NCBI GenBank assembly: GCA_900708905.1
Contig: CAADRB010000048.1
Location: 83,925 to 147,924, forward strand
Direction of reading: 5' to 3'
Length of the DNA: 64,000 nucleotides
From: Hymenolepis diminuta
Lineage: Eukaryota > Platyhelminthes > Cestoda > Cyclophyllidea > Hymenolepididae
The notes under the pieces are model-generated. The model saw nothing but the letters and a program-made list of their open reading frames with translations. It did no database searches and had not been told where the DNA came from. This document shows, in pieces, positions 5,507 through 59,123 of the stretch. The translations under genes were made by a program, and so were the position numbers. How positions within the stretch are numbered: the first letter of the stretch is position 1; the number at the start of each line of letters is the position of its first letter.

Positions 5507-6870
5507 CAGAGTGTATAAGGCATCTGAGGACACCTGGCGCACTTTTAGAAAATCAGAAAATGAAACTGTTAATGGTTGAAGCTTCCAATTTCTTCTAACA
5601 TTACAAAAGCACGCATAATATCTATAAATATGGGTTTTATTCTATATATCCCCCTTTGACTAATATCACCGACTCAATTCGAGTCTGATAGTGACTGACT
5701 GCCAGCTTTCACCACGTGGTCTTTGTTGATTTCCTCCATTGTTCGGGCTATTGCTTCCGTCAGAGAGGCGGATTTGGTGTTATGGGGATGCTTATTAACT
5801 TTCTTTTCAACCACACCACACCCCACCCAGCCCCTCCCACACGTAATAATCCAGAGGATTAAGGTCTGGTGAGTTAGAAAGCGGTCATGAGTTTGGTGCG
5901 ACGTAATCGTGAAAATTCTCGGCTACCTAATCCTGGGTTTTGAGAGCATTATAGGATGGAGCCGATTCATGGTGGAAAATATGGGGTTTTCCTCCATTGG
6001 CTACGCTATCTATCCAAGGCAGTTTAAAACCAATGGTTTGAAGAGTCTCCACATAGGCATCTGCATCTGCATTGACTCTAAACCTCTGTGGAAAAAATAG
6101 AGGGGTTATGATGTCTTCCTCCCTCACTGCTAACAACATTGAAAATCATCATTGTTGTTGGAACCATCATGGGCATGTAAAACAATTGAAACTTCAGTGG
6201 GTCCATCCGCACATTGCCAGCTACCTATCATTCCTTCCATTGACTGTCTGATCCTGATGGATGTTTTCGTGGTCGGAGAAAACCGAAGACACTCCTCTTC
6301 TTCTGAGTGCTTCGATATTTTTAATAGACCTTTTGCACACATTAAACGATTCTCTTGAGTTGTTGTCGTTCATATAAATTGACGACCTCGCTTAACAACG
6401 CATGATTTGCATCCGAGGTCTTGATGAACAATATTCCCTATTCCATATTCCTTATTCCGTCAGATACTGGAAGATTTTTGGCAAATTATCGCAATCTGCT
6501 TCCCAGGATTTTCGTCTATCATGCCATGCCGTCCACTTTTCTCACAAACTCAGGTGTTCTGAGTGAGCGAATCAGCAGAGCGTTGACGATACTCTTTCTC
6601 TTCCTCGTGGTGGCCAATACCTTTCCATTGTTTTCATTCAGCAGCTCCTTTCTAACTTTGCAAACGAAAGATCTGACGGTTTGTTGAAATCTCGAAATTT
6701 CTGAACTCCTATGTTTCCCTTTCATAGACACTAGTAGAGCGTGCCTTTTCATTTCATTAGTTATAGTAGTATCTATCTTGAGATATTTCGATAAAACAAA
6801 TACATTAATTATTATCGGATTTGTTTAAATCACGAAAATATAGGTGTCTTCGGATACCTTACGCACCCCA
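5507..6870 (-). mobile_element. mariner-family DNA transposon, full length but dead
   Basis: The element is bounded by imperfect terminal inverted repeats. The right-hand end (reverse complement of 6840-6870) reads GGGTGCGTAAGG followed by TATCnGAAGACACC, and the left end at 5507 reads CAGAGTGTATAAGGCATC. Each end abuts a TA dinucleotide, which is the mariner target-site duplication. The length of about 1.36 kb is typical of mariner. Inside, on the minus strand, lie broken pieces of a transposase. A second, internally deleted copy is at 51574-52536 in the opposite orientation. The TIR is itself partly palindromic (GTGCGTAAGG ... CCTTACGCAC is clear in the other copy). Confidence 0.85.
5700..6752 (-). 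pseudogene. Broken mariner (DD34D) transposase
   Basis: Read on the minus strand from the ATG at 6752, three pieces in different frames follow one another. An N-terminal DNA-binding region comes first (6752-6519, basic, beginning MKRHALLVS). A middle piece follows (6342-6130) with the family-like WQCADGPTEV. The C-terminal catalytic part (6139-5927) has RVNADADAYVETLQT, PWIDSVANGG and HHESAPSYNALKTQD. Further on, around 5880-5840, SPDLNPLDYYVW can be read; this is the hallmark around the third catalytic Asp of Tc1/mariner transposases. The second catalytic position reads Glu (HHES) where the family has Asp. Frameshifts and stops make it non-functional. Confidence 0.8.
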
Positions 6871-31476: not shown

Positions 31477-32282
31477 ATGAAATTGAATATCCTCGTTCTA
31501 TTCTGCTTTCTCGCCGTCTCTTACGGCTCGGTAAGTAGCTACTGAATTTCATTTAAGTCGACATAATGGGATTAAAAGAAACGTCTTTTTTCTCCCAGCC
31601 CCTGCCAGCCTGTGGTTGCCAAACATATCCATGCGATCAAGAAAGTTATCCCTATGCCATAAACGGGGGTCAGACACCAGAAGAAGACCCATCGACCTAT
31701 GACGTTAAAGTCAGACCAAATTCTGGTTATTCCTACGAAGAATCCAACTATCAATACCTTTCAAATGCAGACGACTCCAGTGAAGAGCAAGGTACTTATG
31801 GCGCTCAACCCAATCAAAGAAGGTATCCATTAGATCAGTCTCAACAGAATGCTCCGCAACAGTCCACACATAGGTCAGTTACTTTAACCTGGAGATTCCA
31901 AGGTGGTAGTGATAACCAGTTGGGAAACCAAAGATCGCAGGGCAAAGACCAAAGACCATGGAATCCCGACCAGACTTCTCAACCCAGGCCAGGTATTCAA
32001 AGACCTTCAAGTAGCCCAATGATGTATGGACATGAAGGTGCTCAGCAAAGACCAGCCGTTCAGCCAATGAGACCTCAAAGACCTTCAATACGAGTTTCTG
32101 TATACGGAAATGACGAGAATATGCAAGACCAGCGGGCTCCTCACACGAGACCAATTCCGAGGCCTAGACATCACCCAAGTGGAAATTCCTGGGAATCCGA
32201 GGGTGGAAACCAATATGGTGGAATGACTGGAATGCCACGCCATCCAATTCAAACATTGCCATGTCCTTATAATGGCTGTTAA
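31477..32282 (+). CDS. Secreted Gln/Pro/Arg-rich protein (245 aa, two exons)
   Basis: Exon 1 (31477-31530) encodes only MKLNILVLFCFLAVSYGS, a classic signal peptide. A 68-nt phase-0 intron (GTAAGT...TCTCCCAG) follows, and exon 2 is 31599-32282. The mature part opens with a Cys-containing LPACGCQTYPC, continues through Gln/Pro/Ser/Asn/Arg-rich sequence with little predicted fold, and closes with a second Cys pair (LPCPYNGC), so the two ends may be disulphide-linked. There is an internal direct repeat of 26 residues: QRPSSSPMMYG and QRPSIRVSVYG, with the 13-base core CAAAGACCTTCAA recurring at 31998 and 32076. The context is a TATA box 44 nt upstream and AATAAA at 32305. It shares this gene plan with 35764(-), 45272(-), 47709(-) and 54605(+). 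The function is unknown; a gland or surface secretion is a reasonable inference. Confidence 0.85.
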
Positions 32283-37924: not shown

Positions 37925-38940
37925 AACCGACTTAACTTACATGCAGCACAATTTCGTCAGATCAAGATTGCAATTTGAATGAAAAAAGAAGATAGAGGAG
38001 CTCGTGCATTATTGGTTTTAGCGATATAAGAAACACTTGAGAATGCATTAAAAGGTAGCAGATCAGGATATTGCAGAGAGAGAGGGCTCGAGTAGTAAGG
38101 GGAATAAATTGATGTGATAAGTTAGGATTCCGATATAGTAGAGCACAAGATGCATACAAAGGTTCAAACTAGGGTACTCAAGGTTACATATATGAGGGTA
38201 AAACGTAAGCTTGACAACACAGAGAAGGAATAATAGAGACAGACATTGACAAATAGCTGAACTCCTTCCAGGAGTGATTAATCTACGAAATAGCACGGTC
38301 CTTTGCACCGATATGCCTGTTTACCGAATCTGCGATGATACCAGCAAATTCTCCGACGAGTGTAACTTATCGAAAATGACCCTGTTCGTGAGGGAATATC
38401 GAATGAATCGGTTTTTCCAGAGGAATTCGCAGATTTTTCCTCCGGTAATGTCAAAACAATAAGATCGGCCATTCGAGCCAATTCAAAGATATCGTTTTCG
38501 TCCAATGTAGTCTCCACAACCGCTTGAACTGACTCTGGCAGCCTAGAAAAGAAAAAGTGCTTCAAATACAAGTCATCCATATCGGTATTCAATGTTAATT
38601 GACGAATTCTCTTGAGAAATTCCGTCGGCAATTCATCACCCATATATACTTTCGAAAGGATTTTCATGGCCTTTGCAGGAGGCACTTCGGTTCTTTCAAT
38701 AATAGCCTTTTTTAGAGCATCATACGGGCTTTCAGATTTGTAAGCTTCTGGTAGTAAATCCGAGATCTCACCAACAATAGCCTCTGTTAGTAAACTGCAA
38801 AGATGGCAAAATTTCACCTTTTGGCATGTAATTTCAGCCACTTCGAAATTGCATTCCAGTACCGTAAACCAACTCTTAACATTGTTAGACCATATTGGGG
38901 GAATAATGACAGGAATTGAATCATTGGAAGCCATTTAAAA
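37925..38940 (-). mobile_element. Ty3/gypsy-type retroelement relic, copy 1
   Basis: About 1 kb that carries a gag-like ORF (38278-38934) and 350 bp of downstream sequence. It aligns along its length with 41500-42335: shared strings include CTTACATGC, GATAAGTTAGGATTC, GGATGGCAAAATTTCA-type and TTTCAGCCACTTC. No protease, reverse transcriptase or integrase frame remains, and no LTR pair could be assigned. Confidence 0.65.
38278..38934 (-). CDS. Retrotransposon gag-like protein fragment (218 aa)
   Basis: An ATG at 38934 opens a frame with WSNNVKSWFTVLE and FCHLCSLLTEAIVGEISDLL. This is the pattern of the DUF7041-type gag domain that precedes a zinc knuckle in many invertebrate gypsy elements. 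The C-terminus has CWYHRRFGKQAYRCKGPC, a knuckle-like Cys/His motif, then stops. There are no stops inside the 218 codons, so this copy is relatively young or protected, yet it lacks pol. The second copy (41880-42335) is clearly decayed. It is not a host gene in my reading, although domestication cannot be excluded from sequence alone. Confidence 0.7.
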   Translation of the reverse strand: MASNDSIPVIIPPIWSNNVKSWFTVLECNFEVAEITCQKVKFCHLCSLLTEAIVGEISDLLPEAYKSESPYDALKKAIIERTEVPPAKAMKILSKVYMGDELPTEFLKRIRQLTLNTDMDDLYLKHFFFSRLPESVQAVVETTLDENDIFELARMADLIVLTLPEEKSANSSGKTDSFDIPSRTGSFSISYTRRRICWYHRRFGKQAYRCKGPCYFVD

Positions 38941-41499: not shown

Positions 41500-42335
41500 A
41501 CTGAACTTACATGCGGTACAAGTTTGCAATTCAAAACGGCATTTTTTATGAGAAAAGGGTAAGAAGCTATTAAAATTCGTGTATTATTATGCAATATCTG
41601 AAAAAGGTAGAATTCTTTAAAGTACGCATAAAAGAGGAGAGTTCGATGACGCCTAAGTAGCACATCAGTATACAACAGAGTGGGTGTTCCAATATTAAGG
41701 GCAAGAAATTGATAAGTTAGGATTCTGATGAAGTAGAGAACAAGGTTCATGCAAGACTCCGAGATAGGATACAAATGGTTCCGTATAAAGGTAAAATGTA
41801 AGGTTGACGAAGTAGGGAAGAAAAAGCTACCGTCTCGTAAAGGCAGATATTAATAGGTAGCTGAACTCCATTCAGAATGGATTAGTCAAATGGTGTACAC
41901 AATGATATGCCAATCAATCATAACATCTTGACCAGTGATTTGTCGACTCTTAGTCCGTTCGCGATGTAGTATTATACGAATTGACCTTTCTAGTGCCGTT
42001 CACAGATTTCCGCTCCGTATAAATTCCTCTAATCAGATCAGCTATTCGAACTGAGTTAGGCATTCAAGAAGAGAAAAAAGCATAAAAGTCATCATGTCGG
42101 CATTCGATCACCTGGATGGTCTTTCGATAGAACATTCATAGCTCTTATAGGAAACATCTTGGTCCTTTCCATAATGGCCTCCTTTAATCATCATAGTGCG
42201 TTTCATAATCGTAATTTTTTGGAATTATGTCTGAGACTTCATCAACAATGTCTTCCGTTAATAGTCTTCGAGGATGGCAAAATTTCATCTTTTGGAAGGT
42301 AATTTCAGCCACTTCAAAATTGCATCCCAAGGCAG
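41500..42335 (-). mobile_element. Ty3/gypsy-type retroelement relic, copy 2 (decayed gag)
   Basis: It corresponds to 37925-38870. Around 42260-42320 the string GGCAAAATTTCATCTTTTGG followed by TAATTTCAGCCACTTC matches the gag coding region of copy 1, but frameshifts and stops break the frame. It lies 3.5 kb from copy 1 in the same orientation. Confidence 0.6.
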
Positions 42336-45329: not shown

Positions 45330-46860
45330 ATTGTTTAACTGTTTACACTGCATTTAATTTAAAAGTACCCGTTTCATCACCTAACTTGGAAACAAATGTC
45401 TTCAAATACTGTTTCTACAAATTGAAGCGGATAGACGATCGAAATGCTTATTCATCGGATTTGCCCGCATTAGGCGTCTAGTCACCTGAAGAAAGACTTC
45501 AGGAGTATTCTGTTAAAAAATTGATGTTTAATTATGGTAGCAGACTGCCATCAAATTTATTGACCTTCTAGCGGACATAGACAGGTAGCTAATCTCTGTT
45601 CCCTTCTCACTTTTATCACTTTTCATCGCAAAAAGGGAAACTGATTAAGACAAGTAGATCATTTGACAAAGTTTTCTAAGGGGAGCATACACAGACGAAA
45701 GGATAGGAAGAGGGTCTCATTGGGCACTATAGCCTAACTAGGATCGCTCAAATGTCACATTAGTGTTCTAATACCATTTAAGGGCACATGATGATTGTAT
45801 ACGAGGAACTTCGATCGTTTTGGGGGATTTAGTCCTCTAAGTTCTACAGAACGCATATTGCTGAGGTCATTCAGAACAGGAGTAGATGTTCTTAGAGGAC
45901 AAAGAGAACAAAGAATTGAGCCTTAGAAAAAAATAGGATCTTTATCATTACAATCTTATTAGTAATGTTTCCACTCATGTTTGCTCATTTATTTTGATTT
46001 TGGATTAATGAATAAATAATTGTTAATACAAAGTCCAAGTAATATAGCTACATCAATTAAATTTGTATGGAGAAGGCTGAAACGGTCGATTAATTATAAA
46101 ATGTCCATATGAGAGCCTACCTGGTGTCTACATGTTGGATGCGAATTGTTCATCCCGAAAAAAGCATAGGCTCTGCGGTTTCGAGTCGTTTATCGGAGTA
46201 TTAAAGAATTGATAAAGTATGCAATTACTACAAAATAACCACGATCATTGATTAGAAGCTTTAACTCTCACCTTCTACTAATTTTCATTTTAGAAAACTG
46301 TGGATGGAGATCTGGAATGTAACTGAACCTTGGGCAAGGCCTTGTGGAGAAATTATTCCTCTATTTTCTAATTTGATTAAGTTTAAGGTGATCTTAGTCT
46401 TGTCTTCATCCCCTCCCCCCCCCCTCTTAGGGTTAAAATAAGTGAGCAATTACGGCATTTATGACAGCTATTAGCATCAAACATCTGCATGCGAGAATAG
46501 ACCCATTTTTTGAAACTGGTCCTGGGCGATTCCCAGCCAATCATCTGGAGCTTGAACGTCAAATTTGCAAACGGACTATTATTAAGCTCTTTCAAACAAT
46601 ATATTAATCACCTGAAATACCCAAAGATGGCAACTGTTAAATCTGTTGAAGAACTGATACACCAATCAATTGTTCCAATGCTACAAATTCCGAACTCACT
46701 ATCTTCGAGCAAAGTCGAGATTTTCGACAAAGTTAAACGAGAGCATTGTCAACCTACTTTTCTCTCATTATCCTAAACTTAAACGAAAAGCGACAAATTC
46801 CACCTTTAGTCCTGTGTTCAACTACGAGACGATGAAAAAAAACAGATGGAATAGGCAGTA
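45330..46860. other. Spacer between two minus-strand secreted-protein genes
   Basis: AT-rich with poly-C/poly-G-like tracts (about 46408-46427). An open frame at 46510-46776 (+) has no promoter or domain support. Nothing else was seen. Confidence 0.5.
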
Positions 46861-46864
46861 CTGC

Positions 46865-46870
46865 TTTATT
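46865..46870 (-). terminator. Poly(A) signal of the 47709 gene
   Basis: AATAAA on the minus strand, 86 nt past the TGA. Confidence 0.6.
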
Positions 46871-46955
46871 AAATATAATTTCTAAACGAGCTTATATTGC
46901 CTCAATGGCTTTTTAATTTCAGGAATGAATTGGTTGAACAGCAAGCATTAGTGGT

Positions 46956-47709
46956 TCATGAAGGAACATGGGTTTTGTCTAACCCTTTTGGATGATGCTT
47001 ATCAGTATCACGTGTATCATCTGGTGGAGTGTTCCTCTTTGATCTGGGCGCCATCCGACCGTCATCGCTTTCAAGATCAATTCCATATTCGCAACCTTCG
47101 GCTCGGTGACTGTCTCTATCAGCTTGAGTTGGGCTTCTTTTCACTCTTGCACTATCACCTTCCTTTTTAGTGGTGTGCATTGCGTTCATAGCTGAATGTT
47201 GTTGAGCAGGATGAAGGGCTTTGTCTTCTTCCTCACTGGCACTTCGCCGGAATTTCATTGTTTCAGAAGCTGGCATTGGCTGTTCATCAGTAAGCATGGG
47301 ATGGTGTTCTAAGTAGACTTGTGTTTTATTGTGCATGGGAGTATTTCTCCTGAATCTTTCAGAGGCTGACATTGGTTTTTTGTCTGACGACATTGGACGC
47401 TCATAGTCTTCCACTTGGATGCGCGGCTTGTCATGCTCAGGAGTGCTTCTTCTTGGTCTGTTTTCATAACAGGGTCTACGATTGATGCAGGCGTGGTCAC
47501 TTCTTCGTTGACGTTTTTCATGGGGAGAATGAGTGGAGTTTCTCGGTAGTTCTAGTTTGTGGTGACGTTCACTATCGTACATTGACTGAAATCGCAAAAG
47601 AGAAATATCAGTGCGTTTTTACGATTAAAATAGTTTTAAATTCTCTTACCGTAGCCGAGACCAGAGCTACCACAAAAGCAAAGAGCACAAAAGAAGTTAA
47701 ACACCTCAT
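46956..47709 (-). CDS. Secreted multi-peptide precursor with furin-type sites (229 aa, two exons)
   Basis: On the minus strand, exon 1 (47709-47650) encodes MRCLTSFVLFAFVVALVSAT, a signal peptide. The phase-0 intron is 64 nt (GTAAGAG...GATTTCAG). Exon 2 is 47585-46956. The mature part is hydrophilic and almost without predicted fold. It contains R-X-K/R-R motifs ending at residues 48, 66, 100, 170 and 204, plus K-F-R-R at 134. The segments after them start S-D, STP, NTP, SAS, SPT and NTP. Residues 65-98 and 99-132 are two 34-residue units, each RR(S/N)TP...PM(S/P)ASE...F; a third diverged unit follows. Cys residues occur only at 53, 59 and 185. The layout matches a polypeptide precursor cleaved by furin-like convertases in the secretory pathway. 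No amidation Gly precedes the basic sites, so classical amidated neuropeptides are unlikely. TATA lies 48 nt upstream and AATAAA 86 nt downstream. Confidence 0.85.
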
Positions 47710-47749
47710 CGTTGTTATCAATCGACGTCAAATGGCTATTTCACGGTCG

Positions 47750-47757
47750 TATTTATA
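47750..47757 (-). promoter_or_regulatory. TATA box of the 47709 gene
   Basis: CAAGTATAAATA on the minus strand, 48 nt before the ATG. Confidence 0.7.
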
Positions 47758-48399
47758 CTTGTCAATTGTTGACAGGATTTGGTCAAGGACAAACGATGTC
47801 AAATATTTTTCCCCTCCAAGTTTATTTGTACTTTTTAACCACGAGGGCAATTTATAGATCATAAGAATAAAGAGGGAAATGCAAAGGGACGGTCATTATT
47901 TGATTTGAAAATAAGTTTAGTTTAAATATTTTTGTCAAGATTAAGAATGTTCTAGGTGAGTTATTCAATAAAAAAGTAATCACATATTTCAATGATTTTT
48001 AATCCGCCCTTATTAGGAAAAAAACAGAATTTCGTTATACCATAACACTAGTCTGTAAGCATGTAGAAAATAAAAACATTTCATGAAAAGCTTACATATT
48101 TGCTAGTTTTTTAACATCTCCAAGGTAAAATTGCCACCTCGTCTCTGAAATAAATAAAGAGGACTCAAGGTCGCCTTTATTCTTCGTTTTGGCAGCAAAC
48201 AAGAAGGGAAAATTGATAGACGTCTTAGAGGCCGAGAGATGAGTCATACACGTAACAGCATAAAGAAGGCGACTATTTGGAGCACTTCGGCGGTGTTTTG
48301 ACCTATAAACATCCGTAACATGAAACCAACTCGTAGTGATTTCTATAGTTCCTGTGAGTTAATAGTGTCCTGGAGTATCTGCACTTCTCCCTTATCTCT

Positions 48400-48515
48400 C
48401 TCTTTCCCTGGGTCCGAATCAACTATAGCCTAGCGGACAGGTGGATCGTAGCAACTGAAAATGGACTTCCTAGCATTACATCGGTGTAGAAAGGTCTTAC
48501 TTTATCGAAATATGC
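48400..48515 (+). repeat. Dispersed repeat family C, copy 2
   Basis: Matches 42840-42950 in order and orientation. Both end near a run reading GTC(T)TACTT-AT. Confidence 0.45.
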
Positions 48516-48939
48516 ACTTTATCAAAATAAATTATTCAATTGCCTGTAACTAATTTTTTTCGAATGGAAGGTCGCGTAGTTTCGTCAATTTACGAACGTC
48601 AAGTCTGATTTAGCGCAAGAATCTTTTCTTTATTGAGGTATTGATTAAGACCTGAAACGGGAAGTTCTAAACAAAGATGTTGAATTCTATTAAATTTCAG
48701 TGAACACTTTGATAATATACAGTAGTAATTAAGTGTCAGTATTTTGATTTAGTCCTTTAGAGAACTTCCTATGTTGGATATGAATAACTGATATTTTCAA
48801 TCGATTTTTAAAAGAAACCGCTATTTTTCAGAAATCTCAATCCAAGTTGAACCAGAAGTCAGTTAGCTTGATTTTTTAATGTACTTGTCTGATAATTTAT
48901 TTGACAGCTTTCATTTGGTAAATGACAAAATGGTAAGCC

Positions 48940-49045
48940 TATGATCACGAGCTGTTGGCGTAGCGGTCGCTATCTACTAAATTTGTAATCACAGATTCGT
49001 TGCTCATCGGCTCTAATCCAGTTAACCCCCTAATGGTCAAAAGGG
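48940..49045 (+). repeat. tRNA-like / SINE-like fragment
   Basis: GAGCTGTTGGCGTAGCGGTC followed by ACAGATTCGTTGCTCATCGG resembles a degenerate Pol III A/B-box head of a tRNA-derived SINE. No tRNA cloverleaf could be drawn. Confidence 0.3.
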
Positions 49046-49844
49046 TTGGAAAAGGTTCTTATCAGTAATATATTGATCTGCTTAAGATAACTGTTGGAAA
49101 ATGCTTGCTTTCGAAGGTTTTTATATAAAAGAAGTCCATATTTTCACCAAAATAACTATCCGATGCTTTATTTTCCATCTCTTTAATCTCCACTTAAATA
49201 TCGCTCTCTCGTTTGGACCAATCTCTTTACATTACAGTAATAAAATGCAGAGAATACAAACTAACATGTGCCCTATTCTGATAATATGGGTTTTGATCGG
49301 TTTGGACTTGTAGCCCGTGTAATCGATAAGGAAATCTAAGCGTCTGTCGCATACTGGAAGAGTGGATCATATCAAAAAGCTTGAGACAAACCTTATGAAC
49401 AAACTCCTGATAATTTAAAACTAATTCAAAATCCTTAATGACTGAATGAGAAGTAACCACCTCTTAAGAGCGATTCTGAATCACAGTTGATTATGTTCAC
49501 AAATTTTAGTTTTCAGGGCTTTAAACCAATTTTAAGAGGTTCCATTCAATCAGAAATGACTGCCAAATCAGGAGACCAGTGTCAGTGAGAAGCGAGCCTT
49601 ATGCAGAGAATGAAATTACAAATTATCCGGTAGGAACTTAACTTAATATTAGTCGGAATGAAAGGTCATAACAAGGTATCTACAGTTCGGATGCATACAG
49701 CAGAAATTGTCCCCATTTTTATCTAAATATTTGATAAGACAGTTCAAATGAAATACAATCAAACAAAACAAAACAAACAACAAAATTGTACAACTGGATA
49801 TCGATTTCGATAAGACCATATGCACCAATTCATACCTTTCCACG

Positions 49845-51573: not shown

Positions 51574-52536
51574 CACACTGCGAAAGGTATCTGAGGCCAC
51601 CTATATTTTCGTGATTTAAACTAATCCGATAATAATTAATGCATTTGTTGTATCGGAATATCTCATGCCAGATACTACTATAACTGATGAAATGAAAAGG
51701 CGCGCTATAAGAGTGTCTATAAAAGAGAAAATTGTAAAATTTCTACAAGCTGCCGGATCTTTCGTTTGAGAAATTAGAAAGGAGCTGATGAATGAAAACA
51801 ATGTAAAGGAATTGGCCTCCACGAGCACTGTCAACGCTCTGACTGACCCACTCACTCAGAACACGTGAGTTTCTGAGGAGAGTGGACGGCATGGCATGAT
51901 AGACAAAAATTCTGGGAATTCAATGCCCGACATCTTGCCGAAGATCTTCAAGTGTCTAAATGAACAACAATATATAAAGAACATTGTTCATGAAGTCCTC
52001 GGATACAAATCATACGCTGTTAGGCAAGGTCGTCAGTTTATGTGAACAAAAACAATCCAGAAGAATCGTTTAATGTGTGCAAAAGGACCCTTAACGAAAT
52101 TGAAGCACCCAGAAGAAGAAGAGCGTCTTTGGTTTTTCTCCGACCAAGAAAACATCCATCAGGATCAAACAGTCAATGGAAGAAATGACAGGTGGCTGGC
52201 TATGTGCGGGTGGAGCCCATTGCAGTTCCGATTGTTATGCATGTGCACGAAGGTTCCAGCAACAATGATGATTTTCAGTGTTGTTAGCAGTGAGGGAGGG
52301 ACACATCATGACACCTCTATTTTTTCCACAGAGGTTTAGAGTCAATGCAGATGCAGATGCCTATGTGGAGACTCTTCAAACCATGGTTTAATTATATATA
52401 TACATATAGTATTAAATCTAGGTTTATATTATGTTTATTTATTTAGTTATAAGAAATTGTAAGTTCCAACGATGAGCAGTTTCGTTTTGTCCTTCTAAAA
52501 GTGCGTAAGGTGTCCTCAGATGCCTTACGCACCCTG
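51574..52536 (+). mobile_element. mariner-family transposon, internally deleted copy
   Basis: Ends read CACACTGCGAAAGGTATCTG (left) and, on the opposite strand, CAGGGTGCGTAAGGCATCTG (right), each next to TA. The interior carries transposase remains on the plus strand from about 51692 (MKRRAIRVS-like start) through VNADADAYVETLQT at about 52365. The catalytic C-terminal third that is present in the 5507-6870 copy is missing, so the element is 963 bp rather than 1364. It is in the opposite orientation to the first copy. Confidence 0.8.
51692..52390 (+). pseudogene. Truncated mariner transposase
   Basis: The plus-strand remnant has in-frame stops (TTTCGTTTGAGAAATTAG), a frame 52073-52339 with GCGWSPLQFRLLCM-type frameshifted sequence, and the string coding for RVNADADAYVETLQT, after which the sequence diverges. 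It is non-functional. Confidence 0.75.
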
Positions 52537-54604: not shown

Positions 54605-57600
54605 ATGAAGCCACTCGCCTTATTCGCTTTTCTCATACTTTCTCTCTGCGCTACAGCATTCTTCTCGTTGGTGAGCATATTACACTAATTTCGTCTTTAT
54701 CTTTTCACTAATTACTCCTTTATCTATAAAATAAGTTCATTAGTTAGATGTATTGGAGAAGAGAGAGGGAGGAAGTGGCCTAAGGAAAACTTCTCCTGTT
54801 TATTATTGAGCTCACGCTGAAGATAATATGTTAACATGTACGTACTATTGTTGGGTATCCATTAAGGTTATTCAGTTTTCTTTTTTCCCCAAACCATTTC
54901 GAAGAAAGATTAGATTAAATGTCGTAGTTGAGAATTACGTGTGGATAGTTGACTATTTAGATAACCCTTATCTGTTTAATACTTTAAGTATTCACAATAA
55001 AGTGTTTGAAGTCGTTAGAATTTATTGAATAATGATATTCTGATTCCTTGCTCTTCAATAGGGCTGCTTTAATTTGCTTACAATCCATATATGGAAGCAT
55101 TTTTATCGATTTTCTGACGTATCTCAAAAGTCTTAGTTACACAGAAGGCAGTTTGTGTTAACTTGTCCTGACCTGAAAGGTCCTTCAGCATAACGTTTTT
55201 GCCTTGTTCATTATTCTCTTTTCAGTCACTCTGGAATACGTTCTTAGCTTGTCCAGTTTCCCAGCGTCTTCCTTTAAATTATTTAACGTTTTATGTTATT
55301 TCATAATTAAAATTAGCTCTTTTCTGTGTATACGACTCTTTCCTGACTTCGTACTTCTTGTTAGAACTATGGATGTTTAATACTACAGCGTCAAGGATAC
55401 TTCCTATTTAGGAAATGAAATATCTCATTCAAATTCGCTGTTATATCATAATATATTAGCCAGTGCTACTTCCTTTTGAACTCTTATCGATGCTTCTCTA
55501 AATATCTTCGATGCCCTTATCAGTGAATGTAACTCGTTGGAATGTTTCTCCTTTCCTCATCATCCAGCAAAATTTAATATCGATATTCAAAATCTCAGCT
55601 TAATAGCATATCCAACTCATACTGAAATGAGGGGTTTTCTTTTTGGATAAAAGTACGCCTTTTTTGACTGACAACAAACATAACTGGGAAAAATGTAAGA
55701 GGTCAGGTGCAGACAGTGGCTCAAATCGGCTCTTGATCGATTTAACGTAGAGAATCAAGTAGTCTAAAGTCAACATCATTACATTCCAGTTGATTTTTGA
55801 ATGCTTACTTGCCTTATAATGCCGGAAATAGTGAAATTTTCCGTAGCCACCAAGGTGTTCGAAAGTCCGATAGCATTAATTCAGAGAATATTTCGCATTT
55901 GGAGCGTTTAATAAAGACAACGATTTTTTTTCCATCCGTAGATTCTCCATATTTCGCATCATCATAGCAGGACGTCTATTTTCTGAAATCTAGGTAGTCG
56001 GACTAAGTATTATTTGAATATGAAATTGGATTAAATTTGCCAATGATATATGCGGAATTTCCCATTACAAACTGAACCCTTAGGATTGTGAAACACTTAA
56101 AGAAATTTGTAGCGGATGCTACACAAATAGGCTCTTGACCAATTCTTTGTAAGCATCAAAGATGTTCAACTAATTGGAGACAAGCACAATAAGTCTCTAG
56201 CAGAGTCCACTAATATAAATTGCCCCTAAAGAGTAACATAGACTACATCAAAGAAATGAGAAGACAGAAGATATGGAGAGGAGAGAGTTTACTGCCAAAA
56301 TTAGTAATTACGGATACAAATAACGCTATGCTGAGGGAATGTTGATCACTGATTACCTGGAAGGTCTCTGCATACATGTCCGTGGTTGCTCGATACGTGA
56401 CTGATTGCATGACTGAACTTTCCAGCATGTTCTAAGACGCGAAAGATCCCTTTGTTCAGCTCTGGTAGCGTAGCGAACTGCGCAAGTTCAACCAACACTA
56501 TCCTGAAATATGGTAGACTAAGATTCATTCAATTAAAGAATATTTTATAAGTAGTATTAAAATCATGCACACATTAAAACACAAATGTTTACATCTTTCG
56601 CATTTGTTATTATCAGTGATTTCTTCAATTATTCATTATTACTCCAAAACTGATAATTCTGGGGAGTTTAATTTCTTGAAAATTTCATCCTGAACACTTC
56701 GAAGTTTTGGGTTTTCTTTACAATTTCTTCTTCTTCTTCTGCAAGAGGATATGCAACCGTAAGATGGAAGTTAGATAACCGCATGATTGTTGAAGTTTTG
56801 AGAACAGTTGAATTGTTTTGCAACGTGATAGAATTTGCTCAACAATTATGCACGCTTGAACAATTATGATCGTTTCACAGAATATTTTGGAATGTAATAA
56901 AATATCAAAGATGGAATTCGGATAGGCGATGTATTAACAAACTATTTTTAAAGCCCTTGAATTGTATTCATTAACTTAAAAAGATTACCCGTCGATTGAA
57001 AATTTATGTATTTTTCTCTATGTAGCCGGCCCTCGATGCCAAAATCGACGAATACTTGGTAAAAACCCATTCGAAGAGAAGCCTAGATGAAGATCGTAAG
57101 TACTGAGCTTTGTCCGCAACGTAAATATTTTCTAGTTTTGAAAGCTGCAAAGCAGCATATCTACAAGAGCATTGACCAAGTTTTCCAGTTGGTTCGCGAG
57201 TGTAAAGAGCGTGGTATTGCCGCATCCGATTGTGAAATGGTTGCAATCGCCAAGGTCGACAAAGATCGAGAAGGAGACAGTCGCAGTCAGGGAAGATACG
57301 GTGAGCAAGACCCAACAAATGACCCAAATCAACAACAGCAATCCTTTAGTAATAGCCACAACGGCAGAATTCAACAGATCGGGTATCCCAGTCAGCCGAA
57401 TATACAAACTCAACCCCACGTAGAGTCAAGATTTGAGTTCACTGAAAGACCAAATCCGCGAAATGACGAAGGACAAGGAGATCCACGGACGCTTCAGTCT
57501 TATTCAAACCCCCAAGCACCTTTCTCTGAGAAACCACGGAGTATAGTAGATCTATCCCATCCTTTCCAGAGAGATCGAAGCGGCTTAAATGGCAATCCTC

Positions 57601-59123
57601 AAGATCTGACTAGGCCGTGGTCCGAGCAACAGCAACCTTCAAATAATTACCAGAGGTCACCACCTGTCAGTGGTCCTTCTGCTGGATTCATGAGAAGAGA
57701 TCAAGTAAGTGCTCAAGGGTTACATAAACCATATGCACCACGTCCAATACCTTATTACAGAGATCAACAACCCCCCTATGATCCTCACAAACCACACCTT
57801 GCAATCGATCCACCCGTGGGTTCCTTTGGACAAAATCCGTACTCTGCATATCCTCAACCAAGAGACAGTCGGTATTTGAGCGACCCGAATAGGGCTCAAA
57901 TCGCTAGTGATCCCGCTGAAACAGTCTCGGGAAGAAATTCCTATTCAGGATATCAGAGTTCTTTACCTACTGGCCACCAAAGATTAGCAAAACCGTGGTT
58001 CCCACGGCCAACCTATTATGGGGAGCCTCAAATCCCTAGTGACCATAGTGAAACACTCATAGGACCCAGGTACCATGGACCTGTACCTCTTTCTGGTCTA
58101 ACCTCACCAGTTTCCGGTCCAGGAGTTCAGCCGCCACATGAAGATAGAAGATATCACCACTTGTCTGGGATGGCATCACATGAAAGAACCGCGGTCCCGC
58201 CTGGAAAAGAGCAGCCAAACGCATTATCAGGAACTGAACCAAGGTTTGAAAGTGTTTACGTATCGGCACCGGCCTATGACAGATCGTCAGTTAATGAATA
58301 TCCAAGGCCTGCAACTCCTCAAGCATTTGATCCTCGGGTCAGTGCTCAAAGTGGGATCAGAGTTCAAGATGGAGTCAGCAATATTGAATTACTGAGAGGT
58401 ACACCGGTTACTGATATACCAAGTAAGAATTTTATGAATGCATCGAGTCAACAAGATAGTCATCAGGTTACTCTTTCTACTCCAGACGTTTATCAGCGTT
58501 CATTACCTGCAAATTTAGAGGCTAGGATTTATAAAATCCCAATGAACTCATCAGGGATAGCAGTACTACCCACAGAAGATCCGTCATCTGCTAAACTAAA
58601 TATAGACCCTAATTTTAACATTTCGAGATCTCCAGATGGTACTTTGAATATTCATACTGGAGGAAAGGTTTATCAGATTGATCCATCAAAAATGCTCAGG
58701 GCTCGTACTGGAGGTAAGTGGGAGTCAACAGAGTATGAAGAACTCCAAGTTGCTGTTCCTGACATCTCATCAAAACCTCCCCCTTCATTAGAAGGCGCGG
58801 GAGAGCTTCCAAACTTAGATGAACCATACAGCCAAGACGGCAAGAACGTCACCATTGATTCAACTAAGATGCTTACTGCTCGAACTGGAAGAAAGGCGAA
58901 GGTATCACAGGAGGGGATAAATGTTCAGTCTGACCCAGCAACACACGACGATGAAAGTGTGAATCCTGATCCCACTAAATCTGAGGACGCCGAAGCGGAA
59001 GGTTCCGAAGCTAACTCACTCAGGACTCGTGCAGTTAGAAGCGCAGAAGCTGAAGACGAAGTTCAAAAAACTGATAAAGAAACTCAAGTCAGCCCAGATG
59101 TAGATATGCAATTTGAAGAATAA
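54605..59123 (+). CDS. Large secreted Pro/Gln/Tyr-rich repetitive protein (707 aa, three exons)
   Basis: Exon 1 (54605-54670) encodes MKPLALFAFLILSLCATAFF and SL, a signal peptide. Intron 1 is 2355 nt and phase 0. Exon 2 (57026-57095) encodes PALDAKIDEYLVKTHSKRSL and DED. Intron 2 is only 40 nt (GTAAGT...TTTTCTAG, phase 1). Exon 3 is 57136-59123. Residues about 40-100 are the only fold-like part: amphipathic, with DLLKAAKQHIYKSIDQVFQL, two Cys and a KR site. Residues about 100-480 are Pro/Gln/Ser/Tyr-rich and repetitive, for example RAQIASDPAETVSGR versus EPQIPSDHSETLIGP, 44 residues apart. The C-terminal part repeats YQIDPSKMLRARTGGK as VTIDSTKMLTARTGRK, 59 residues apart, and then becomes acidic (ending DVDMQFEE). 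There is no membrane anchor, so it is probably an extracellular structural, mucus or gland protein. The family is not recognised. If intron 2 were retained, translation could only start at the internal ATG 57087, without a signal. Confidence 0.85.
54671..57025 (+). other. Intron 1 of the 54605 gene
   Basis: A 2.4-kb AT-rich intron from GTGAGC to CTATGTAG. It contains an inverted LTR/TRIM-like fragment at about 56100-56230. No extra exon was supported, although small exons would be hard to see. Confidence 0.65.
56100..56230 (-). repeat. Solo-LTR / TRIM-like repeat, copy 3 (fragment, inverted)
   Basis: The reverse complement ends TTTGTGTAGCATCCGCTACA, identical in its last part to the end of the copy at 20940-21295. 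It also contains ACTCTGCTAGAGAC where that copy has ATTCTGCTAGACGC. Confidence 0.55.

What the first reader, a model, noticed from the sequence alone, without database searches (positions are those of the whole stretch)
46956..47709. Tandem-unit secreted precursor with a regular ladder of furin sites
After a signal-peptide exon, the 229-aa product has five perfect R-X-K/R-R sites (ending at residues 48, 66, 100, 170, 204) and one K-X-R-R (134). Each is followed by a segment opening with Ser or Asn, often S/N-T-P. Two segments are exactly 34 residues and clearly homologous; a third is diverged. Known family knowledge: furin-like convertases cut after R-X-K/R-R in the secretory pathway. Inference: several related disordered peptides are released from one precursor. 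I know of no described family with this layout, and the lack of Gly before the sites argues against ordinary amidated neuropeptides.
Basis: partly seen in the sequence, partly recalled or inferred. Interest (0 to 1): 0.8.

Follow-up and report, generated by a model that had tools for sequence, protein, structure and literature searches.

The report
Tapeworm secreted multi-peptide precursor gene
A small tapeworm gene appears to encode a secreted protein with six conserved cutting sites for furin-like enzymes, which would release several short peptides; the layout is known from other animals, but this gene looks new and its job is unknown.

Summary
On the minus strand a signal-peptide exon (47709-47650), a 64-nt GT-AG intron and a second exon (47585-46956) encode 229 aa with exactly the six basic sites listed; 0 of 200,000 composition shuffles reach six [KR]X[KR]R[SN]. 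The genome is a tapeworm's by its only named relative, Hymenolepis weldensis (79-80% identity); a third sequence, of unnamed origin, is 75-77% identical. In these three sequences all 18 basic residues of the six sites stay basic, against 9 of 18 other Lys/Arg (p 0.001); 28 of 30 site columns are invariant against 95 of 153 others. The H. weldensis protein carries the same signal exon joined at the same place. The genome has four convertase P-domain matches. So a secreted precursor with selected convertase sites is well supported; the cuts themselves are inferred. Corrections: only segments 3 and 4 are demonstrably homologous, one duplication rather than a ladder; and the layout has precedents (Drosophila Baramicin, apidaecin, nematode polyprotein allergens). 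No paralogue and no further homologue was found; RNA and peptide data were not available. Verdict: real, probably lineage-restricted, a new family of a known architectural kind; role unknown.

The parts
47750..47757 (-). TATAAATA, possible TATA box starting 48 nt upstream of the ATG
   Evidence: sequence; function inferred (another TATAAAT lies 147 nt upstream)
47650..47709 (-). Exon 1 coding part: signal peptide, residues 1-20; probable cleavage after V-S-A (residue 19)
   Evidence: 16 of 20 residues the same in H. weldensis
47586..47649 (-). 64-nt intron, GTAAGA...TTTCAG
   Evidence: the H. weldensis protein is joined at the same place
46956..47585 (-). Exon 2 coding part, residues 21-229 and TGA stop
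47502..47513 (-). Convertase site 1, RQRR then S, residues 45-48
   Evidence: invariant in 3 of 3 sequences
47448..47459 (-). Convertase site 2, RPRR then S, residues 63-66
   Evidence: invariant in 3 of 3
47346..47357 (-). Convertase site 3, RFRR then N, residues 97-100
   Evidence: invariant in 3 of 3
47244..47255 (-). Convertase site 4, KFRR then S, residues 131-134 (RFRR in the two relatives)
47136..47147 (-). Convertase site 5, RVKR then S, residues 167-170
   Evidence: invariant in 3 of 3
47034..47045 (-). Convertase site 6, RSKR then N, residues 201-204 (KSKR in the two relatives)
47448..47501 (-). Predicted segment 2, 18 aa, with C-X5-C here; the number of Cys differs among the three sequences
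47346..47447 (-). Predicted segment 3, 34 aa, homologous to segment 4
47244..47345 (-). Predicted segment 4, 34 aa; its first 22 residues show one change (V/I) among three sequences; conserved sequon N-K-T
47136..47243 (-). Predicted segment 5, 36 aa (35 in P0003), the most variable segment between two sites
47034..47135 (-). Predicted segment 6, 34 aa, one Cys kept in 3 of 3
46959..47033 (-). C-terminal segment, 25 aa; its end differs in both relatives
46865..46870 (-). AATAAA, possible polyadenylation signal, 85 nt after the stop
   Evidence: function inferred

Best explanation
A tapeworm gene, found once in its genome, encodes a secretory polypeptide precursor. The signal peptide is removed in the ER. 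Furin-like or related convertases cut after six [KR]X[KR]R sites in the late secretory pathway, and trimming of the basic tails leaves an N-terminal propeptide, five segments of 18-36 aa and a C-terminal tail, none of them amidated. Shown: gene anatomy, six sites, their conservation in three sequences, convertase-type domains in the genome. Inferred: expression, secretion, the cuts and the role. My commitment on role is a set of co-released extracellular effector peptides rather than amidated neuropeptides. The confidence below is for the cut secretory precursor; for the effector role I would give about 0.45.
For: Six sites beyond chance. All 18 basic site residues stay basic in three sequences against 9 of 18 other Lys/Arg (Fisher p 0.001; identical residues 16 of 18 against 9 of 18, p 0.027). 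28 of 30 site columns invariant against 95 of 153 others (p 0.0005), all six P1' Ser/Asn invariant, segment lengths equal except one residue in segment 5 of P0003. Signal exon conserved and joined at the same place in H. weldensis; hydropathy of the N-terminus fits a signal peptide in both. The genome has four P-domain matches over the cut-off: three match furin or kexin structures (best E 2e-56) and one matches none. Ten S8 matches include the same four contigs.
Against: No RNA or peptide data. Only three sequences, which share history, so the p-values are descriptive. The signal peptide was judged by rule and hydropathy, not by a dedicated predictor. The model of exon 2 is of low confidence throughout (mean pLDDT 52.6, 9 of 209 residues at 70-90), which with a three-sequence alignment says little; its only helix, exon-2 residues 74-81 (94-101 of the protein), lies across site 3, which does not favour an exposed site there. 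P- and S8-domain matches on C61, C64 and C85 lie 11-36 kb apart or carry stops, so that they form single genes is inferred. The effector role has no direct evidence.
Confidence: 0.72

Rival explanations
1. A peptide hormone or neuropeptide precursor (an alternative role for the same cut precursor): one conserved segment, best candidate the start of segment 4, acts on a worm receptor, and the rest is spacer.
For: Segment 4 starts with 22 residues that show one change among three sequences, and conservation is uneven: 27 of 34 columns invariant in segment 4, 17 of 35 in segment 5. PC2 is used as a marker of peptidergic cells in Hymenolepis microstoma (passages of PMC10614006), and the genome has furin/PC-like domains and one amidating-enzyme domain.
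Against: No Gly before any of six sites; segments long for neuropeptides (recalled); no short repeated C-terminal motif; no homologue found outside three sequences, whereas neuropeptides are often shared across flatworms (recalled).
Confidence: 0.2
2. An uncut secreted disordered protein (structural, eggshell or mucus-like) whose basic clusters bind acidic partners.
For: No confident fold; two N-glycosylation sequons kept in 3 of 3 sequences; 18 further Lys/Arg outside the sites.
Against: Only half of the other Lys/Arg are kept, against all of those in convertase register, and the P1' Ser/Asn is fixed at six of six sites. The two site changes are K-R exchanges at P4.
Confidence: 0.15
3. A chance open frame or a mispredicted gene.
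For: No RNA evidence here; no Pfam or NCBIfam match at cut-off in any of the three sequences.
Against: At 75-80% identity the frame is kept in three sequences with a single 1-residue gap over residues 22-204, and H. weldensis has the same signal exon.
Confidence: 0.04

Closest known systems
Drosophila Baramicin A antifungal polypeptide precursor
   Same: Several short peptides in one precursor between RXRR furin sites, some of them tandem repeats (passages of PMC8423362)
   Different: No sequence relationship found; the IM10-like motif is absent here; Baramicin is immune-induced in flies; here only two segments are alike and no activity is known
Nematode polyprotein allergens (ABA-1)
   Same: Helminth secreted polyprotein cut at spaced [KR]X[KR]R motifs (passages of PMC3079579)
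   Different: Their units are folded (seven helices) and bind lipid; here segments are 18-36 aa without a confident fold, and Pfam shows no such domain
Human salivary proline-rich protein, statherin and histatin peptides
   Same: Secreted peptides that furin-like convertases cut at R-X-X-R-type sites (passages of PMC10454625); that basic PRP precursors yield several peptides is seen there only as a reference title and recalled
   Different: No sequence relationship found; much richer in Pro and Gln
Amidated neuropeptide precursors
   Same: Signal peptide and basic cleavage sites (class recalled)
   Different: No Gly before the sites, longer segments, no shared C-terminal motif

Membership tests
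Multi-peptide secretory precursor cut by proprotein convertases (architectural class) | N-terminal signal peptide | tested here: met
   Sequence and hydropathy, conserved in H. weldensis; no dedicated predictor available
Multi-peptide secretory precursor cut by proprotein convertases (architectural class) | Several convertase sites, conserved | tested here: met
   three sequences
Multi-peptide secretory precursor cut by proprotein convertases (architectural class) | Cut peptides found in the animal | not testable with these tools
   no peptide data
Drosophila Baramicin | Homology to Baramicin peptides (IM10-like motif) | tested here: not met
   Two parts of the motif printed are absent from the 229 aa; no insect protein among the hits at E up to 10, a search limited to relatives that share exact 5-residue words
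Nematode polyprotein allergen | Its folded lipid-binding domain | tested here: not met
   The only Pfam match of the window protein is Chi-conotoxin at E 0.11, 13.2 bits against a cut-off of 27, taken as chance
Amidated neuropeptide precursor | Gly directly before the basic cleavage site | tested here: not met
   0 of 6 sites

The most novel reading that the evidence does not exclude
A fast-evolving, hymenolepidid-restricted 'protein operon' that releases several distinct non-amidated peptides acting together at the host interface: a design known from insect antimicrobial genes and not seen for tapeworms in the listings.
Probability: 0.3. Interest if true: 0.65.

Novelty: new member of a known kind. 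Interest (0 to 1): 0.42.

Why it matters
If the peptides exist, one transcript would release a fixed set of peptides, with predicted ends that can be looked for in worm secretions. Domain-based annotation misses such genes because no model matches them, and a published helminth antimicrobial-peptide screen dropped proteins over 150 aa (passage of PMC10414684), so a 229-aa precursor of this kind would have been left out of it.

Tried and rejected
Remote homologues: three searches of the 5.8-billion-protein set (window protein; three-sequence profile; residues 30-140 of P0002), E up to 10, returned the same three proteins, one of them the window's own. Paralogues: protein and DNA searches of the own genome found this locus alone; the tool warns that only the best candidates are scored. 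A tblastn against the window gave, beyond the gene, only hits at E 0.99 or worse. Viral contigs: 1 stretch matched a pattern, none confirmed (query P0002); phage records: none at E up to 1. Solved structures: none at E up to 10. Pfam and NCBIfam: nothing at cut-off; the weak rows are Chi-conotoxin for the window protein and YxzE for P0002. Rfam over 46000-49500: none. Codon-level selection was not computed, because no DNA of the relatives was fetched. The model of exon 2 is of low confidence, so no fold search was run.

The last 11 residues of the H. weldensis protein correspond to window 46815-46783, downstream of the stop and of the AATAAA here; I take them as a gene-model artefact or a species difference. 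P0003 also differs at its end, with a 6-residue gap; a shift of frame is my reading, not tested.

Papers. Passages only were seen of PMC6890685, PMC10614006, PMC4070553, PMC8423362, PMC10454625, PMC3079579 and PMC10414684; others as search listings. Listings bearing on tapeworm precursors showed 20 of 32, 20 of 21 and 1 of 1 papers; no paper held names H. weldensis. The 2022 survey of cestode neuropeptides (Preza et al., J. Neurochem.) was seen only as a reference; I did not ask for it by its id, and it could list this gene.

Full report
What is there. The gene lies on the minus strand. Exon 1 (47709-47650) encodes a 20-residue signal peptide stretch, then comes a 64-nt intron with GTAAGA and TTTCAG ends, then exon 2 (47585-46956), 229 aa in all. 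A TATAAATA starts 48 nt before the ATG and an AATAAA lies 85 nt after the stop, so the unit looks complete and compact; these two functions are inferred from sequence. The six basic sites are exactly those of the finding, and all six are followed by Ser or Asn.

Chance. Of 200,000 shuffles of residues 19-229, none had six [KR]X[KR]R[SN], 24 had six [KR]X[KR]R and 17 had five RX[KR]R. In the window it is the only stop-to-stop frame of at least 40 aa with three or more [KR]X[KR]R.

Which organism. The own genome has 170.6 Mb in 203 contigs. The only named relative is a hypothetical protein, marked partial, of the tapeworm Hymenolepis weldensis. At 79-80% identity the window is most likely from a hymenolepidid tapeworm. 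The size is near the 177 Mb published for H. diminuta (passages of PMC6890685), but I did not establish the species. The third sequence, P0003, is from an unnamed source.

Conservation. The alignment of three sequences was used for all counts; no row was dropped. One gapped column was left out, and the 30 site columns (P4, P3, P2, P1 and P1' of six sites) include residue 205. Of these 28 are invariant, against 95 of 153 others in residues 22-204 (Fisher p 0.0005). All 18 basic site residues stay basic, two of them by K/R exchange; of 18 Lys/Arg elsewhere 9 stay basic (p 0.001; for identity 16 of 18 against 9 of 18, p 0.027). Three related sequences share history, so these p-values are descriptive. 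H. weldensis has the same signal exon at 16 of 20 residues and the same junction. Segment lengths 18, 34, 34, 36 and 34 are the same in all three but for one residue of segment 5 in P0003. The C-terminal ends differ.

Repeats. Segments 3 and 4 are homologous in all three sequences (0 of 1000 shuffles each, basic sites stripped); of the 21 pairs tested per sequence no other is below 0.05 in all three, the best being segments 4 and 7 (0.010, 0.005, not listed). Segments 3 and 4 align with compensating 2-residue gaps, so their shared length is not a strict period, although it is kept in the three sequences. I read this as one internal duplication rather than a ladder of repeats.

Processing. The genome has four matches to the convertase P domain over the cut-off. 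The open frame on C3 runs from the S8 active-site region into the P domain and matches furin structures at E 2e-56; by recalled sequence it looks most like PC2. C64 and C85 match furin or kexin; C61 matches no solved structure. Ten S8 matches, on six contigs, include C3, C64, C85 and C61, several with stops inside, as unspliced genes would give. One copper monooxygenase (amidating enzyme) domain is present, but no site of this precursor has the Gly that amidation needs. Taenia solium has four kexin/furin-like members in a published survey (passages of PMC4070553).

How it most likely works. Signal peptidase, then convertase cuts at six sites, then trimming of the basic ends, would release hydrophilic peptides that are not amidated and have no confident predicted fold (weak evidence with three sequences; the one predicted helix lies across site 3). 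Segment 4 is the best conserved of the larger segments (27 of 34 columns), segment 5 the least (17 of 35), and the short segment 2 is higher than both (15 of 18). Uneven conservation leaves open whether one segment is the product and others are spacers. The role is inference: finding no homologue beyond three sequences fits a fast-evolving secreted effector better than a conserved neuropeptide, but the search needs shared 5-residue words and can miss diverged orthologues.

Compared with what is known. Baramicin A is the closest architectural match: a precursor cut into multiple peptides at RXRR sites, some in tandem, described as akin to a 'protein operon'; the same passage names apidaecin as an earlier case (PMC8423362). 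Nematode polyprotein allergens are the helminth precedent for units between [KR]X[KR]R motifs (PMC3079579). It may work like these, but it is a member of neither. The listings show no such precursor in tapeworms; a published helminth antimicrobial screen left out proteins over 150 aa, and the 2022 survey of cestode neuropeptides was not seen.

Verdict. Observation confirmed; interpretation partly supported; a new orphan family of a known architectural kind.

Noticed in passing
window 38278-38934 (-): Open frame with a DUF7041 match (E 1.4e-14), which I recall from retrotransposon gag-like proteins; a 75% identical DNA copy of part of it lies at 42096-42329.
   Followed up: partly
window 57087-59123 (+) and 31557-32282 (+): Open frames of 678 and 241 aa rich in Pro, Ser and Gln without a Pfam match; compared with each other they show no significant similarity (best E 0.13).
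   Followed up: partly
window 6027-6865 and 51579-52389: Inverted dispersed repeat, 83% identical over 847 aligned positions; further pairs at 33729-33952/53243-53460, 24045-24232/43791-43988 and 1832-1965/21147-21281.
   Followed up: no
P0002, residues 146-150: H. weldensis has an extra dibasic stretch (RAQKR followed by Ser) inside segment 5 that the window protein lacks, so the peptide set may differ between species.
   Followed up: no
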